A stretch of 64,000 bases of DNA, taken from assembly GCA_030690365.1 (NCBI GenBank), contig JAUYGX010000112.1, positions 1 to 64,000 on the forward strand. The letters run 5' to 3'. The position numbers and the translations under genes are program-made. The notes beneath the pieces were generated by a model. That model had not been told where the DNA came from, did no database searches, and was given only the letters and a program-made list of their open reading frames with translations. Shown here piece after piece: positions 33,701 through 38,364 of this stretch. Numbering within the stretch: position 1 is the stretch's first letter; every line of letters begins with the position of its first letter. The DNA is from Bacteroidales bacterium. GTDB lineage: Bacteria > Bacteroidota > Bacteroidia > Bacteroidales > F082.

Positions 33701-34219
33701 CAAATCCTTTTCGTACAGCATTTTCAACAGATACCAAACCGACTCGATGTATTTATTATCAAAGGTGATATATGGATTCTCAAGATCGACCCAATATCCG
33801 ATTCTTTTGGTAAGATCATCCCATAAATCCTTATATTTCAGCACTTCCTTACGGCAGGCCATGTTATATTCCTCAACACTGATTTTCTTTCCGATGTCTT
33901 CTTTGGTGATGCCAAGCGTTTTTTCAACCGAAATCTCAACCGGCAAACCATGTGTATCCCAACCTGCTTTACGCTGAACATATTTTCCCTTCAAAGTCTG
34001 GTAACGGCAAAACAAATCTTTGATGGTACGGGCCATCACATGGTGAATTCCGGGTACGCCATTGGCCGAAGGAGGTCCTTCGTAAAAAACAAAATGGTTG
34101 TTGTTTACGCGGTTGGTAAGGCTTTTTTCAAAGATATTGTTTTCATCCCAAAATTTACCCACCTCTTCAGCAAGAAGGGGAAGGTTCAACTGTCCATATT
34201 CATTATATTTTCTCGACAT
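30788..34219 (-). CDS. ileS: Isoleucine--tRNA ligase, IleRS2 type
   Basis: 1143 aa, the long eukaryote-like form. The class I signature reads GIHH (57-60, in PPSANGVPGIHHVM) where housekeeping IleRS1 has HxGH: positions 1 and 3 of the motif are exchanged. KMSKR is intact (GNKMSKRLGN). An editing CP1 domain is present (WTTTPWTLPSN), and a long C-terminal region with VRQPLSKIMIP follows. It charges tRNA-Ile. The GxHH form of IleRS2 is associated with very high mupirocin resistance. First gene of the operon with dksA-like and lspA, preceded by an exact TAATTTTG promoter element. Confidence 0.97.
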   Translation of the reverse strand: MSRKYNEYGQLNLPLLAEEVGKFWDENNIFEKSLTNRVNNNHFVFYEGPPSANGVPGIHHVMARTIKDLFCRYQTLKGKYVQRKAGWDTHGLPVEISVEKTLGITKEDIGKKISVEEYNMACRKEVLKYKDLWDDLTKRIGYWVDLENPYITFDNKYIESVWYLLKMLYEKDLMYKGYTIQPYSPAAGTGLSTHELNQPGCYRDVTDTTIVAQFKVVRESVSEKLFAAAVGDLYFLAWTTTPWTLPSNTALAVGDNIVYVQVVTFNPYTGIPITVILAKNRLSAFFSEKNDELAFEDYKAGDKKIPFRIVDEYKGFELTGITYEQLFPWVKPDGKAFEVIPGDFVTTEDGTGIVHIAPTFGADDDRVAKATGIEPLILIDATGERRPMVDLTGRFFQLDVLDQEFVKQFIDVEAYSEFAGRFVKNDYDESLGKEDASLDVDLAVKLKKENLAFRIEKHVHSYPHCWRTDKPVLYYPLDSWFIKTTSLKDRMIQLNKTIQWKPKATGEGRFGNWLENLQDWNLSRSRFWGVPLPIWVTEDRTEKIALGSAAELKAEIEKAVAAGVMNQNPMRDFEPGNMSRENYETFDFHRPYVDNIVLVSPTGQKMFRESGLIDVWFDSGAMPYAQYHYPFENKELFEENFPADFIAEGVDQTRGWFFTLHAIASMLFDSVAYKNVVSNGLVLDKNGNKMSKRLGNAVDPFLTIDQYGPDATRWYMITNSQPWDNLRFDLSGIDEVRRKFFGTLYNTYSFFALYANIDGFTYSEKEIPYEERSELDRWILSELNSLIKNVDESLAGYEPTKAGRAIQDFVTEHLSNWYVRLSRRRFWKGNYTKDKIEAYQTLYHVLEVVSQLSAPIAPFFADRLFMDLNAVSGRFKAESVHLTDFPVAREVLIDTDLEERMELAQQISSMVLSLRKKNNLRVRQPLSKIMIPVLNQKFKEQVQAVEDLILSEVNVKSIEYLSEDSDVLVKKIKPNFKTLGPKYGKHMKALAALIQVLTAEQIKHLEKEEQLVVNLDGNELTISIEDVEILTEDIPGWSVATEGIVTVALDITLSPDLQNEGLARELINRVQNLRKEKGLEVTDRVLLKVVKNPHTDEAFLSFKEYICAETLSDFHLTDSVGDGDFATQELTEGVFVTFNVDKI

Positions 34220-34255
34220 CTACAAGCTGGATTAACGAAATTTTAAATAAGTCGG

Positions 34256-34263
34256 CAAAATTA
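34256..34263 (-). promoter_or_regulatory. Candidate -7 element (TAATTTTG) for the ileS operon
   Basis: Minus strand TAATTTTG is an exact TAnnTTTG box, 37 bp upstream of the ileS ATG. A TTTG word lies about 23 bp further upstream, slightly wider than the usual spacing. Confidence 0.5.
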
Positions 34264-34450
34264 AGAAATTTTCCCATTTCTATGATCAAACCTTAAGGAC
34301 CGAATCTCTGGAAATAAGGGGCTTGAACTAGTGATTATCCATCAGTTTATATACGGCTCCGATGTTTTTTAAAAATAACAAACATGAAAAGTATAGAAAA
34401 ATATATGATCAGGAGACTAAATTCCAATTACAATTCATATTTTTGCTGTG

Positions 34451-34462
34451 TATACTTGTATA
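34451..34462 (+). promoter_or_regulatory. Palindrome TATACTTGTATA before the methyltransferase
   Basis: TATAC and GTATA arms form a perfect 5-bp inverted repeat around TT, ending 21 bp before the ATG at 34484. It is a candidate autoregulatory operator for the MerR-like domain of the methyltransferase (inference). Confidence 0.4.
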
Positions 34463-34483
34463 AGGTTGTTTAATGTTAAGATA

Positions 34484-35557
34484 ATGGAAAAATACATAAA
34501 TGTTGGTCATGCAGCTAAACTTATTGGTGTAAGTACTGAAACACTAAGACGATGGGATAAAACAGGTAAATTCGAGAGTATTCGTCATCCTATAAACAAC
34601 TACAGAGTATATTCAGAAACAAGTGTATACTCTTTAGTGAAGGAGTTACAGCTTGAATTACAATACTACAAAACTCCTTTTACATCTATGGAAATAGTTC
34701 CAATATTCGAGACAAAACATGGAAAACTTTATAAATATGATGCCATAAAATTTTTAAAAACGCTGGAAAATGAATCTGTTGATTTAATTTTTGCTGATCC
34801 TCCGTACAATATTCGAAAAGCTGAATGGGATACATTTGCATCTCAAAAAGACTATGTCAATTGGAGTATGGAGTGGATAAAGGAAGCACACCGAGTGCTC
34901 AAAAAAACGGGTTCATTATATATCTGTGGGTTTTCGGAGATTCTGGCAGATTTGAAATGGGGAGCATCAAACTTATTTGAAGGCTGCAAGTGGCTTATTT
35001 GGTTTTACCGCAATAAAGGGAATTTAGGTAATGATTGGGGACGTTCGCACGAGAGTATTTTGCACTTTAGAAAAAGTAAAGATTTCATATTCAATCTTGA
35101 TAGCATTAGAATACCCTATAATGAACATACATTAAAATATCCTTCACGAAAGCAAGCAGAATCCTCACAATTTTCAAACGGGAATAATGATGGCCATGAG
35201 TGGACTCCTAATCCTTTAGGCGCTAAACCTAAGGATGTATTGGAAATTCCGACCATTTCAAATGGGGCGTGGGAAAAAACAACTCATAAAACCCAAAAAC
35301 CTGTTGAATTGTTGAGAAAGATAATCTTGTCTTCCTCTAATGAGGATAGTATAATTCTTGATCCGTTTGGTGGATCCGGCACCACTTTCGCTGTAGCCGA
35401 AGCGTACGGAAGAAAATGGATTGGAACCGAACTTGAGGAGGAATATTGTACTCTAATTAAGGATAGATTGTCTGACAAGAATCATCTGAAAAGAATTTTA
35501 TCGGGCAAAGATGAAAAAGAATCTCAAAACAGAAGGTTAAAATTAAGGGGTAAGTAA
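34484..35557 (+). CDS. DNA methyltransferase (beta class, probable N6-adenine or N4-cytosine) with N-terminal MerR-like HTH
   Basis: 357 aa from the ATG at 34484; a GTG at 34448 would add a leader that overlaps a palindrome. Residues 1-45 form a MerR-type helix-turn-helix (INVGHAAKLIGVSTETLRRW). After a linker comes motif IV DPPYN (105-109), then a target-recognition region, then motif I DPFGGSGTT (293-301). The IV-before-I order defines the beta class. The protein protects host DNA in a type II restriction-modification system with the convergent nuclease gene, whose 3' end overlaps it by 15 bp. The HTH fusion suggests the methyltransferase also represses transcription. Recognition site unknown. 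AT-rich compared with neighbours. Confidence 0.88.
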   Translation: MEKYINVGHAAKLIGVSTETLRRWDKTGKFESIRHPINNYRVYSETSVYSLVKELQLELQYYKTPFTSMEIVPIFETKHGKLYKYDAIKFLKTLENESVDLIFADPPYNIRKAEWDTFASQKDYVNWSMEWIKEAHRVLKKTGSLYICGFSEILADLKWGASNLFEGCKWLIWFYRNKGNLGNDWGRSHESILHFRKSKDFIFNLDSIRIPYNEHTLKYPSRKQAESSQFSNGNNDGHEWTPNPLGAKPKDVLEIPTISNGAWEKTTHKTQKPVELLRKIILSSSNEDSIILDPFGGSGTTFAVAEAYGRKWIGTELEEEYCTLIKDRLSDKNHLKRILSGKDEKESQNRRLKLRGK

Positions 35558-36433
35558 TTTCCAAATATCTTGTGTTACCAATTCTGAAAATGGTTTAATA
35601 TATTTATTGTAAGGCTCTTTACCAGCATTCGGTGGAGGATCAAGATAATATATTCCTTCCAATTCTGTTAAAAAACTGGAATACACCATAAAAAGCCCTG
35701 AAACCAACGTAAAACTGATGTTATCAGATTCTTTTCTTTGAACATCATTCAAAAAAATGCCAATTACTTTTTGCTTGTGATTAACAAATCGTTCTAGCAA
35801 GATTTTATCAATAAACATTTTACCCATTCTGTCTTTGGATGTTGTTTTAATTGATACAACAACTTCATTATTATCCAGGTGTTTGCTGGTGGATCTGACT
35901 TTATTATATGGGGATAGGATCATATCGTTTTCACAATTATAAGTTTTTTCACCTTCTTCCGTCATATAAGGGATTTTGAGTACTGTTTTCTGGTTTGCAA
36001 TGCCTATTTCCGTAAAAATGGTTTTTATCAACTCCTCAAATCTATTTCCCACATGTTTCCTGGCACTATTCGGATTTGCCAACAAATCAAATCCAGCCCC
36101 AATGGCTTGTTGTATTGTATATATTACACTATCAATCAGCATTTTCTCTGGGGTACTCAAAATGATAATCCTGTTTTTTAACTTATTCATCACGGTTTCG
36201 AATTCAGCATACTTTGCTTTAAATTCTTCAGCAGAGTAAATAAACAACCTCTGATTTATCGGCCTGATATACTTGGTAGTTCCCGCAATATTAGAGGAAT
36301 GAATTCGATACCCATTTTTCTCTTTGTATGCACTTAGTACATTTGGCAAATATTCCAATACACGCAAGGTGATATATTCAAAATCCTGAATTGAATTTTT
36401 TTTCTGTTGTAGATCCAGATCTAATGGAAGCAT
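35543..36433 (-). CDS. Type II restriction endonuclease (PD-(D/E)xK-like)
   Basis: 296 aa. A probable nuclease core begins with the helix RFEELIKTIF (131-140), then D170 (CENDMIL) and VSIKTTSKDR (193-202, with Lys196), a D...(S/E)xK layout with the KTTSKDR extension typical of type II restriction enzymes. N-terminal ~120 residues are helical and may bind the target. Partner of the methyltransferase at 34484; the genes converge and overlap by 15 bp. Its start is directly downstream of a TATATTTG promoter box and a palindrome, placing an operator at its transcription start. Recognition sequence and subtype are not identifiable by eye. Confidence 0.75.
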   Translation of the reverse strand: MLPLDLDLQQKKNSIQDFEYITLRVLEYLPNVLSAYKEKNGYRIHSSNIAGTTKYIRPINQRLFIYSAEEFKAKYAEFETVMNKLKNRIIILSTPEKMLIDSVIYTIQQAIGAGFDLLANPNSARKHVGNRFEELIKTIFTEIGIANQKTVLKIPYMTEEGEKTYNCENDMILSPYNKVRSTSKHLDNNEVVVSIKTTSKDRMGKMFIDKILLERFVNHKQKVIGIFLNDVQRKESDNISFTLVSGLFMVYSSFLTELEGIYYLDPPPNAGKEPYNKYIKPFSELVTQDIWKLLTP

Positions 36434-36443
36434 TTTTGTTTTT

Positions 36444-36463
36444 TTTGGCTAATTTAAGCCAAA
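36444..36463 (-). promoter_or_regulatory. Operator-like inverted repeat at the endonuclease promoter
   Basis: Minus strand TTTGGCTTAAATTAGCCAAA: perfect 7-bp arms around a 6-bp spacer, located between the -7 box (36464-36471) and the start codon (36433). This is the position expected for a repressor that blocks transcription. Confidence 0.55.
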
Positions 36464-36471
36464 CAAATATA
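36464..36471 (-). promoter_or_regulatory. -7 element (TATATTTG) of the endonuclease gene
   Basis: Exact TAnnTTTG on the minus strand, 30 bp upstream of the endonuclease ATG and abutting the inverted repeat. Confidence 0.5.
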
Positions 36472-36628
36472 AAAACACGGCTTAGTAATATTTTTTTAAA
36501 ATTATTCCCGATTTAAAACGATTCAGCATTTATAATTTCATTGTAAAAGCACCTTTCCTCTAGTTTACAGAAAAATTACGCCTTCATTTCTATCCATACA
36601 AAACCCGAGATCCGAAAACGGGATTTAG

Positions 36629-36715
36629 TATCTTTGTCCTCAAATCGAAACCTTTTCTTCAAAAAGCTCTGTAACTCTTTTTAACATCTCTGCTATTGAT
36701 GAATCACTATTTTTG
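36629..36715 (+). promoter_or_regulatory. Two candidate -7 elements upstream of the S41 protease
   Basis: Exact TAnnTTTG boxes TATCTTTG (36629-36636) and TATTTTTG (36708-36715) lie about 97 and 18 bp upstream of the ATG at 36733. Which one is used cannot be told. Confidence 0.4.
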
Positions 36716-36732
36716 CAAAAATCTATTTGTAA

Positions 36733-38364
36733 ATGAAAAATTCCTATAAATATCTGCCAATTGTTTTCGCCATTATTTTAATTGCCGGCATTTGGGTAGG
36801 GACCTTGCTTCCACAAAGTGGTATTTCAAGTAATACCCTATTTCCATCCATTTCGCCCGATTACAACAAGGTGAGTGATATTATGGACTATATCGTACAC
36901 GACTATGTAGATACCGTGAATATAGAGATGCTACAAACCGATGCCATTAAAGGTGTGCTGGAAGATCTCGACCCCCATTCGGCCTACATTACAGCCGACG
37001 AATTTCATCAGGTAAACGATCCGCTATTGGGTAGTTTTGAAGGAATCGGAATTTCATTCAGAATAGAAAAAGACACTATCACGGTGATTAACACCATACC
37101 TGGCGGACCTTCGGAGAAGGTTGGATTGATGGCAGGTGACCGCATTGTTCGGGTGGACGATTCGCTGGTTGCGGGCAATGGTGTTACCAACGACTTTGCC
37201 ATGCATAAACTGAAAGGAAAAAAAGGCACACGGGTAAACATCACAGTTTTTCGCCGTGGCGTTCCTAAACTCCTTAATTTCAACATTACGCGCGATGTAA
37301 TCCCAACTTACAGTCTGGATGTGGCTTACATGGTTACCCCCACCATTGGATTTATCAAGCTGAATACCTTCGCCGCCACTACTTACGAGGAGTTCAACCT
37401 GGCAGTAGATAGGTTGCGCAACCAGGGAATGAAAAAACTCATCCTGGATCTGCGCGGAAATCCGGGAGGATACCTCCAGGCTGCCATTGATATTGCGGAT
37501 GAATTTTTAAGCCAGGGAAAACTGATTGTTTACACAGAAGGAAAAAACCGACCCAGACGGTATGCTTATGCCACCAAATCGGGCACACTTCAAAACAGTG
37601 AGGTAGCCATTTTGATTGATGAAGGATCGGCTTCGGCCAGCGAAATTGTAACCGGTGCCTTGCAGGACAACGACCGGGGACTGATTATCGGGCGCAGGTC
37701 TTTTGGCAAAGGATTGGTACAGGAACAGATGAGTCTGCCTGATGGATCGGCATTGCGGCTAACAGTGGCCAGATACTACACTCCCACCGGAAGGTGCATT
37801 CAAAAGCCCTATGTAAAGGAAGACTTTAAAGATTACTACTCAGAAGCTTACCATCGCTATACTTCGGGTGAGATGTTAAACGCCGATAGTGTGCAGTTGA
37901 ACGACAGTCTTAAATATATAACACCCGGAGGAAAAATTGTTTACGGAGGTGGTGGCATTATGCCTGATATTTATGTTCCGTTGATAACCGACACCCTTCA
38001 CACCTATTATAACCTGTTGGCCAACAAAGGTTTGATTTTCACCTATGCCTTTGACTATACCGATAAGCACCGCCCAGAATTAAGCAAATTCTCTGATTTT
38101 GAGATTTTTAACAAAGGGTTTAACATGACGGATGCAGATTACAAGAATCTGGTTGCTTACGCAGAAGAAAAGGGAATTAAGGAGAATCCTGAAAAAGTAG
38201 CTGTATCAAAGAGCAAAATTAAAACGCTATTTAAAGCTTATATTGGGAGAAACATTCTTGATGAAAAGGGATTTTATCCTATCTTTCATCAGATAGATAC
38301 TACTTTTAACCGGGCCGTTTACGAGTTGACGAAACCGGACCAGGGGGAGCCTTTGCCTTTGTAA
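36733..38364 (+). CDS. C-terminal processing peptidase, S41 family
   Basis: 543 aa. N-terminal membrane anchor or uncleaved signal (IVFAIILIAGIWVGTLLP), then a helical region, a PDZ domain (about 85-175; GIGISFRIEKDTITVINTIP) and the S41 protease domain. The catalytic Ser is in LIDEGSASASEIVTGALQ and the Lys in RRSFGKGLVQEQ. A C-terminal extension (about 385-543) follows. Tail-specific proteases trim C-termini of envelope proteins in the periplasm. It has its own promoter elements and ends 28 bp before the convergent kinase-like gene. Specific substrates are not predictable. Confidence 0.93.
   Translation: MKNSYKYLPIVFAIILIAGIWVGTLLPQSGISSNTLFPSISPDYNKVSDIMDYIVHDYVDTVNIEMLQTDAIKGVLEDLDPHSAYITADEFHQVNDPLLGSFEGIGISFRIEKDTITVINTIPGGPSEKVGLMAGDRIVRVDDSLVAGNGVTNDFAMHKLKGKKGTRVNITVFRRGVPKLLNFNITRDVIPTYSLDVAYMVTPTIGFIKLNTFAATTYEEFNLAVDRLRNQGMKKLILDLRGNPGGYLQAAIDIADEFLSQGKLIVYTEGKNRPRRYAYATKSGTLQNSEVAILIDEGSASASEIVTGALQDNDRGLIIGRRSFGKGLVQEQMSLPDGSALRLTVARYYTPTGRCIQKPYVKEDFKDYYSEAYHRYTSGEMLNADSVQLNDSLKYITPGGKIVYGGGGIMPDIYVPLITDTLHTYYNLLANKGLIFTYAFDYTDKHRPELSKFSDFEIFNKGFNMTDADYKNLVAYAEEKGIKENPEKVAVSKSKIKTLFKAYIGRNILDEKGFYPIFHQIDTTFNRAVYELTKPDQGEPLPL

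What the first reader, a model, noticed from the sequence alone, without database searches (positions are those of the whole stretch)
34484..36471. Type II restriction-modification pair whose methyltransferase carries an N-terminal MerR-like HTH
Residues 1-45 read as a MerR/helix-turn-helix (AAKLIGVSTETLRRW) fused to a beta-class methyltransferase (DPPYN before FGGSGTT). The partner nuclease is convergent with a 15-bp overlap, and there is no separate C-protein. Some cytosine methyltransferases (SsoII, EcoRII types) use an N-terminal extension to repress their own system; a MerR-type domain doing this on a beta-class enzyme is much less familiar to me. The AT-rich island may be a self-regulated R-M system of a new type.
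Basis: partly seen in the sequence, partly recalled or inferred. Interest (0 to 1): 0.7.

Follow-up and report, generated by a model that had tools for sequence, protein, structure and literature searches.

The report
Self-repressing methyltransferase with BldC-like DNA-binding domain
A bacterial restriction-modification pair whose protective enzyme carries its own DNA-binding domain and very probably switches down its own gene by docking on a repeated DNA word beside its promoter; the same domain and word also occur with an unrelated family of such enzymes.

Summary
At 34484-35557 lies a beta-class amino-methyltransferase (M) with an N-terminal MerR-type HTH (Pfam MerR 34.1 bits, cut-off 28.2), convergent (15-bp overlap) with a real restriction enzyme (model matches Kpn2I, VIA Z 26.7). 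The HTH's best structural match is BldC on DNA (Z 8.2; MerR-type dimers 6.0-6.6). New here: all 16 HTH-fused M genes examined have 10-bp direct repeats, consensus GTTGTATAAt, just upstream of the start codon; 15 of 16 have three or more units in register. No such run lies upstream of R (0 of 13), and 17 non-HTH relatives fit poorly. The exact site occurs once in the 4.3-Mb host genome. The same HTH is fused to an unrelated C5-cytosine methyltransferase family (nucleases sampled: Eco47II- and EcoO109I-type) with the same core upstream (12-base word in 10/16 and 11/23; chance about 0.0003 each). Best reading: M represses its own promoter, probably by BldC-like head-to-tail binding. SsoII/EcoRII-type regulatory methyltransferases are the nearest known; this is a new variant. 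DNA binding itself is untested.

The parts
34484..35557 (+). M gene: HTH-fused beta-class amino-methyltransferase, 357 aa
34493..34645 (+). MerR/BldC-like winged HTH, residues 4-54 of M
   Evidence: Pfam MerR and MerR_1 above cut-off; model residues 2-56 match BldC-DNA 6ama Z 8.2
34646..34705 (+). variable linker, residues 55-74 of M (no invariant position among residues 51-74 in 16 rows)
34706..35482 (+). methyltransferase domain, residues 75-333; DPPYN (motif IV) before DPFGGSGTT (motif I)
34438..34445 (+). Bacteroidota-type -7 box TATTTTTG of the putative M promoter (no TTG at -33 found in this copy)
   Evidence: -33 search; promoter consensus recalled
34445..34474 (+). putative operator: three direct 10-bp units GCTGTGTATA CTTGTATAAG GTTGTTTAAT; core TTGTATAAGGTTGTTTAA at 34456-34473
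35543..36433 (-). R gene: Kpn2I-like Type II restriction endonuclease, 296 aa; no repeat run upstream
35543..35557 (.). 15-bp convergent overlap of the M and R reading frames; no terminator-like site found in 34200-36800
34438..36457 (.). stretch homologous at DNA level to the nearest relative (L032, 72% identity): -7 box, operator, M, R

Best explanation
A Type II R-M system with built-in negative feedback. After entry into a new cell the M promoter is free and M is made quickly, protecting the genome. As M accumulates, its N-terminal BldC-like winged HTH binds direct 10-bp repeats (three here, two to five in relatives) just upstream of the start codon, blocks RNA polymerase, and holds M low enough that incoming DNA is cut before it is methylated. 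R comes from its own distant promoter and has no such repeat run. Shown by sequence: the domain, the repeats, their co-occurrence, and their sharing with C5 enzymes. Inferred: DNA binding and autorepression (about 0.8) and the head-to-tail mode (about 0.6). Speculative (about 0.25): unchecked M transcription running antisense into convergent R delays R until M is repressed. The confidence below is for autorepression through the repeats.
For: (1) HTH above Pfam cut-off; residues 2-56 match BldC-DNA complexes best by VIA (6ama Z 8.2, 54 aligned; 6amk Z 7.6), then RdfS 6.7 and Xis 6.6; MerR-type dimers 6.0-6.6. (2) Period-10 units upstream of M in 16 of 16 HTH loci, runs of 3 or more in 15; identity at lag 10 is 0.50 against 0.28 further upstream (14 loci). 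The motif was seen in 10 loci; of 6 fetched later 5 fit the two-unit consensus with at most 2 mismatches and L033 has a diverged 10-bp repeat. (3) 17 non-HTH rows: best fit 4 to 9 mismatches. R upstreams: 0 of 13 reach three units. (4) Own genome: one exact site; the other 20 hits have 2 mismatches, and the reversed-pattern control gives 22 hits. (5) C5 enzymes with this HTH carry the same core: 12-base word TTGTATAA[GT]GTT in 11 of 23, all 23 with an AACC/GGTT-framed box. In 26 long loci all 15 occurrences of the word lie just upstream of HTH-M genes. (6) TAnnTTTG near the core in 10 of 16 and 16 of 23 (chance 0.04). (7) Literature: BldC binds 9-bp direct repeats head-to-tail (PMC5859096, passages); RdfS about 10 bp per molecule (PMC11963761, passages); HTH-mediated M autorepression is established for C5 enzymes (PMC3874152, passages).
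Against: No binding, footprint or expression data. Single-locus probabilities for the repeat run are modest (0 to 0.048), and the 16 loci are related. L033, L034 and L019 fit less well; 14 of 23 C5 loci have 4 or more mismatches to the pair. The R upstream of L021 has one exact TTGTATAA unit beside a TATATTTG box, and L024 has a 2-mismatch pair, reversed, about 130 bp before R. The window's own promoter lacks a recognisable -33 TTG. BldC's repeat is 9 bp, here 10. BldC is not the top relative by every measure: in Foldseek BldC (3.0e-3) and the MerR-type BmrR (5.2e-3) are close; by sequence profile 3qao, 2jml and BrlR score slightly better; NCBIfam's BldC model gives M 16.5 bits against a cut-off of 77, below several other regulators. 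The M model is weak overall (pLDDT 61; residues 1-50 in blocks of 62-81).
Confidence: 0.8

Rival explanations
1. The HTH is an accessory DNA-contact domain for methylation (affinity, processivity or specificity) and does not regulate.
For: M must bind DNA anyway; N-terminal substitutions in M.Ecl18kI also affect methylation (PMC3695355, passages).
Against: Relatives 54-62% identical over the methyltransferase part lack it and still pair with homologous R (further loci); the HTH is shared with C5 enzymes whose sampled partner nucleases are of other families; the repeat accompanies it at M starts.
Confidence: 0.1
2. The repeats are a promoter or leader-RNA element read by host factors, not by M.
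For: They abut a Bacteroidota-type -7 box and lie in the probable 5' leader.
Against: No good match upstream of non-HTH relatives or runs upstream of R; the exact site is unique in the host genome; the core is present with an unrelated enzyme family that shares only the HTH.
Confidence: 0.07
3. M acts like a C-protein on both genes, directly activating or repressing R as well (not exclusive of the best explanation).
For: C-proteins and Ecl18kI-type M affect both genes (PMC3874152 passages; PMC6237814 introduction). One R upstream (L021) has a single exact unit.
Against: No run of three units upstream of R in 13 of 13 examined; the M and R starts are about 1.9 kb apart in convergent orientation, so their promoters cannot overlap; in L032 the DNA homology ends about 24 bp upstream of R.
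Confidence: 0.1
4. Control works through methylation of a target site in the M promoter (CfrBI or LlaDII style), the HTH being incidental.
For: Methylation-dependent control is known in other systems; the target motif of this M is unknown.
Against: The conserved element is a repeated non-palindromic unit tied to the HTH and shared by enzymes of two chemistries.
Confidence: 0.05

Closest known systems
SsoII / Ecl18kI / EcoRII / ScrFI regulatory methyltransferases
   Same: N-terminal HTH on the modification enzyme; operator beside its own promoter; no C-protein; expected autorepression. EcoRII M represses only its own gene, as proposed here (PMC12707154, passages).
   Different: Those are C5 enzymes; SsoII/Ecl18kI have a C-protein-like HTH, a 15-bp quasi-palindrome and an overlapping R promoter. 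Here: amino-methyltransferase, MerR/BldC-like wHTH, direct 10-bp repeats, convergent genes.
BldC (Streptomyces) and head-to-tail wHTH proteins (RdfS, Xis)
   Same: Best structural match of the domain by VIA; no coiled-coil dimerisation; direct repeats at about one helical turn.
   Different: BldC is a 68-residue stand-alone regulator with a 9-bp repeat AATTNNNNC; here the domain is fused to an enzyme and the unit is GTTGTATAAt, 10 bp.
Kpn2I R-M system
   Same: R shares the Kpn2I fold end to end (Z 26.7, 267 aligned); in Kpn2I R is constitutive and weak while M is repressed, the logic proposed here.
   Different: Kpn2I uses a separate C-protein with another gene order; here M itself is the proposed regulator. 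The recognition site of this R is unknown.
RptR, and HsdC of Mycoplasma gallisepticum
   Same: R-M promoters controlled through direct repeats.
   Different: Separate regulator proteins of other R-M systems, not part of the methyltransferase polypeptide (abstracts only).

Membership tests
Type II restriction-modification system | DNA methyltransferase domain | tested here: met
   PF01555 E 5.6e-54; PADLOC MTase_II E 6.5e-66
Type II restriction-modification system | adjacent homologue of a known restriction endonuclease | tested here: met
   PADLOC REase_II E 2.4e-35; Kpn2I 6ekr Z 26.7
Type II restriction-modification system | both enzymes act on the same site | not testable with these tools
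   needs methylome and cleavage assay
Beta-class amino-methyltransferase (MboIIA/RsrI-like) | motif IV before motif I | tested here: met
   DPPYN 105-109, DPFGGSGTT 293-301; MboIIA 1g60 E 1.5e-37
Regulatory methyltransferase (SsoII/EcoRII type) | N-terminal HTH fused to the methyltransferase | tested here: met
Regulatory methyltransferase (SsoII/EcoRII type) | C5-cytosine methyltransferase domain | tested here: not met
   M is PF01555; met by the sister HTH-C5 family where tested (L172, PF00145)
Regulatory methyltransferase (SsoII/EcoRII type) | palindromic operator of the SsoII type | tested here: not met
   the conserved element is a 10-bp direct repeat
Regulatory methyltransferase (SsoII/EcoRII type) | binds its operator and represses its own gene | not testable with these tools
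   assay needed
BldC family | MerR-like wHTH fold without coiled-coil dimerisation helix | tested here: met
   helix 45-54 then a variable linker and the enzyme
BldC family | direct-repeat operator | tested here: met
   by sequence only
BldC family | 9-bp repeat AATTNNNNC | tested here: not met
   10-bp unit GTTGTATAAt; BldC motif
BldC family | NCBIfam NF033787 (HTH_BldC) cut-off | tested here: not met
   16.5 bits vs 77 for M and for an HTH-C5 protein
MerR family regulator (classical) | MerR HTH model above cut-off | tested here: met
   34.1 vs 28.2 bits
MerR family regulator (classical) | coiled coil, effector domain, symmetric dimer on a palindrome | tested here: not met
   domain followed by a methyltransferase; direct repeats; the definition is and recall
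C-protein-controlled R-M system | separate small controller gene beside M or R | tested here: not met
   no such ORF of 60 aa or more in the gaps from ileS to the S41-type gene

The most novel reading that the evidence does not exclude
A portable self-control cassette, BldC-like HTH plus a TTGTATAA-repeat operator, is shared by methyltransferases of two unrelated chemistries (amino-type with Kpn2I-like R; C5 with Eco47II- or EcoO109I-like R) in Bacteroidota (phylum inferred from named relatives). Methyltransferase molecules assemble head-to-tail on their own promoter as a counting device, and the convergent gene layout (16 of 16 and 9 of 10 HTH loci looked at) couples release of R to that count through antisense transcription.
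Probability: 0.4. Interest if true: 0.75.

Novelty: new variant of a known kind. Interest (0 to 1): 0.62.

Why it matters
How an R-M system without a C-protein makes M before R is a long-standing question. This gives a directly testable answer for two enzyme families: a defined 30-bp operator, a 55-residue domain and a spacing rule. It would put the MerR/BldC fold and direct-repeat binding into the set of R-M regulators, and show that the control domain moves between unrelated enzymes together with its operator core. The operator also gives a sequence handle for finding such systems.

Tried and rejected
Palindromes as operator: inverted repeats near both starts were listed; the one at R is not conserved in L032, and the conserved element upstream of M is a direct repeat.

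Corrected in the notebook. The conserved word TTGTATAA[GT]GTT has 12 bases; the output calls it an 11-mer by my slip in the script.

Target site from avoidance: counts of NCCGGN and other palindromes in the 64-kb window show no clear avoidance of CCGG sites; uninformative.

Operator upstream of R: 0 of 13 reach three units; three of the 16 loci were left out because R is broken or cut by the contig end (L032, L034, L129).

Non-HTH control: for 12 of the 17 rows the gene start was taken as the beginning of the open frame, so the upstream is approximate; I scanned 200 bases before to 120 after it.

Phage-borne copies: one viral scan gave two weak hits; L168 looks like an IS607-type resolvase (read by eye).

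Papers on a MerR- or BldC-type regulatory methyltransferase: searches returned none that I recognised from listings, abstracts or passages; most listed papers were not opened and REBASE is not available here. A PADLOC profile (PDLC03272) already spans the HTH of the C5 family, so the fusion itself is in collections.

Tree: the HTH label needs one change, but support for that branch is weak (30/62; 31% of bootstrap trees).

Full report
What is there. The window holds an AT-rich two-gene island between ileS (minus strand, start codon at 34219) and an S41-type peptidase gene (plus strand, from 36733; both names read from the translations by eye, not searched). M is 357 aa from ATG 34484; R is 296 aa on the other strand; their 3' ends overlap by 15 bp. 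One search lists no further ORF of 60 aa or more that could be a controller in the gaps to ileS and the S41 gene.

M has PF01555 (E 5.6e-54) and an N-terminal MerR domain above Pfam's cut-off, with MboIIA as nearest solved sequence. R has PADLOC REase_II E 2.4e-35, and its model (pLDDT 87) aligns end to end with Kpn2I (Z 26.7, rmsd 2.7, 267 residues; Foldseek E 1.8e-14). Ten R copies share invariant D170, K196 and K200-D201-R202 among others; reading these as the catalytic and CCGG-recognition residues is recalled, not tested.

Relatives. R homologues occur in 15 of 395 genomes drawn from the phylum. Ten of these 15 (own included) carry an HTH-fused M, all convergent with a 4-15-bp overlap; five lack the HTH. 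Named genomes added four HTH loci (L032-L035, of the 80 kept from a capped list) and the class search two (L128, L129; 5 of 395 genomes had R hits); all six are convergent, with a longer overlap (45 bp) in L128. The non-HTH relatives have other N-termini; of the 18 used in the tree 16 have R in tandem and two (L031, L047) convergent. On the tree of the methyltransferase core the HTH label needs one change, with weak support. The island is variable: same-genus genomes G731 and G733 have ileS and the S41 gene but no M/R there; homology to them breaks at 34325 and 36672, and a 743-aa ORF sits in between in G731. The DNA homology to the closest relative L032 is window 34438-36457: -7 box, operator, M and R.

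The operator. Upstream of M all 16 HTH loci have in-register units (at most 3 mismatches to TTGTATAA) at a 10-bp period: two in L034, three in 13 loci, four in L032, five in L020. Markov-shuffle probabilities per locus are 0 to 0.048. Pooled over 14 loci, self-identity at lag 10 is 0.50, against 0.26-0.34 at the other lags from 5 to 15 and 0.28 in the control stretch. The motif was noticed in 10 loci; of six loci fetched afterwards five fit the two-unit consensus with at most 2 mismatches, and L033 has a diverged repeat, TACATAAGGT followed by TACATAAGGA. Controls: 17 non-HTH rows (two probably the same record) have best fits of 4 to 9 mismatches, the range of most shuffles; 0 of 13 R upstreams reach three units, though that of L021 has one exact unit beside a TATATTTG box, and L024 has a reversed 2-mismatch pair about 130 bp before R; in the host genome the exact pattern occurs once, all 20 other hits have two mismatches, and the reversed control pattern gives 22 hits. 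A TAnnTTTG box lies near the core in 10 of 16 loci, in seven with a TTG 20 bp further upstream, so the repeats should cover the start of transcription there. The Bacteroidota promoter consensus is recalled. The window's own copy has TATTTTTG at 34438-34445 but no TTG at -33.

The domain. In the M model residues 1-50 have pLDDT 62-81 in ten-residue blocks while much of the enzyme is poor (mean 61). VIA-align places BldC-DNA complexes first for this part (6ama Z 8.2, rmsd 2.4, 54 aligned; 6amk Z 7.6, rmsd 1.7), then RdfS 6.7 and Xis 6.6, with MerR-type proteins at 6.0-6.6; differences under 1 count as ties. Foldseek ranks BldC first too, but closely (3.0e-3; BmrR 5.2e-3). By sequence profile BldC is not the top hit: 3qao, 2jml and BrlR score slightly better, and NCBIfam's BldC model gives 16.5 bits against a cut-off of 77. 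BldC binds 9-bp direct repeats head-to-tail without a coiled coil (PMC5859096, passages); RdfS covers about 10 bp per molecule and BldC filaments have one DNA turn per protomer (PMC11963761, passages). Mean column identity in 16 M rows: HTH as a whole (4-50) 0.73, recognition helix 0.80, wing 0.87, linker 0.48, enzyme 0.81.

A second, unrelated enzyme family. An HTH-only profile (15 rows) hit 22 of 395 phylum genomes at E 1e-8 or better: 10 are the amino-type M, 10 are proteins of about 410-430 aa of another kind, 2 are other proteins (L166, L167). L172, one of the ten, is a C5-cytosine methyltransferase (PF00145 E 5.6e-85, MerR above cut-off). The class search (20 of 395 genomes) added 13 more loci of this kind. 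Only L172 was run against Pfam; the others are assigned by shared HTH, length and terminal sequence. In the ten with longer flanks nine have a convergent neighbour and one (L171) does not. Four neighbours were tested: one is RE_Eco47II, three are RE_EcoO109I. At all 23 starts lies a box AACC-N21/22-GGTT, in none of the 16 amino-type loci, around a core that in 11 of 23 contains the 12-base word TTGTATAA[GT]GTT found in 10 of 16 amino-type loci; the chance rate is 0.0003 per 90-bp upstream. In 26 long loci (549 kb counting both strands) all 15 occurrences of the word lie upstream of an HTH-M gene. The repeat pair itself is weaker here: 14 of 23 have 4 or more mismatches and the lag-10 signal is 0.37 against 0.24-0.33. 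With the inverted AACC/GGTT frame, the binding geometry may differ. Apart from the HTH, BLAST finds no significant similarity between the ten C5-type proteins compared and the window's M.

How it most likely works. Shown: domain, repeats, co-occurrence, sharing. Inferred: M binds the repeats and represses its own promoter. This is the logic of SsoII/Ecl18kI/EcoRII (PMC3874152, PMC12707154, PMC3978073, PMC3695355: passages), where the enzyme is C5, the SsoII/Ecl18kI HTH resembles C-proteins and the site is a 15-bp quasi-palindrome. Since R has no repeat run, R is probably made constitutively, as in Kpn2I (PMC6237814, abstract and introduction). The frames overlap and no terminator-like site was found in 34200-36800 (the shuffles give 1.3), so M transcripts probably run into R antisense; whether that delays R is open.

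Verdict. It is a new variant of the regulatory methyltransferase, not a new category.

Noticed in passing
L156-L165 and L182-L194, upstream of M: HTH-fused C5-type methyltransferase loci have an inverted frame AACC-N21/22-GGTT around the TTGTATAA core (23 of 23), absent from the 16 amino-type loci; it may reflect a different binding geometry.
   Followed up: partly
L030 (two stretches about 9.4 kb apart): Two M/R pairs with identical match scores lie on one contig of genome G284, each with a further methyltransferase-like ORF beside it: a recent duplication or an assembly effect.
   Followed up: no
L023, L032, L034: Broken copies in these assemblies: M of L023 has an internal stop, R of L032 is split over two frames, R of L034 is truncated.
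   Followed up: no
L142:2476-4707 and L145:2332-4494: At the ileS-S41 position same-genus genomes carry an ORF of 743 or 720 aa (arylsulfotransferase-like by eye, not searched) where the window has M/R: a variable site.
   Followed up: partly
L171:3379-3867 (Pfam Vsr) and L170:4436-4903 (similar by eye): Vsr mismatch endonuclease genes sit beside two of the HTH-C5 systems.
   Followed up: partly
window 1-64000: CTAG is strongly under-represented (10 found, 48 expected).
   Followed up: no
window 36433-36474: Imperfect inverted repeat (18-nt arms, 78%) at the R start, not conserved in L032; role unknown.
   Followed up: partly
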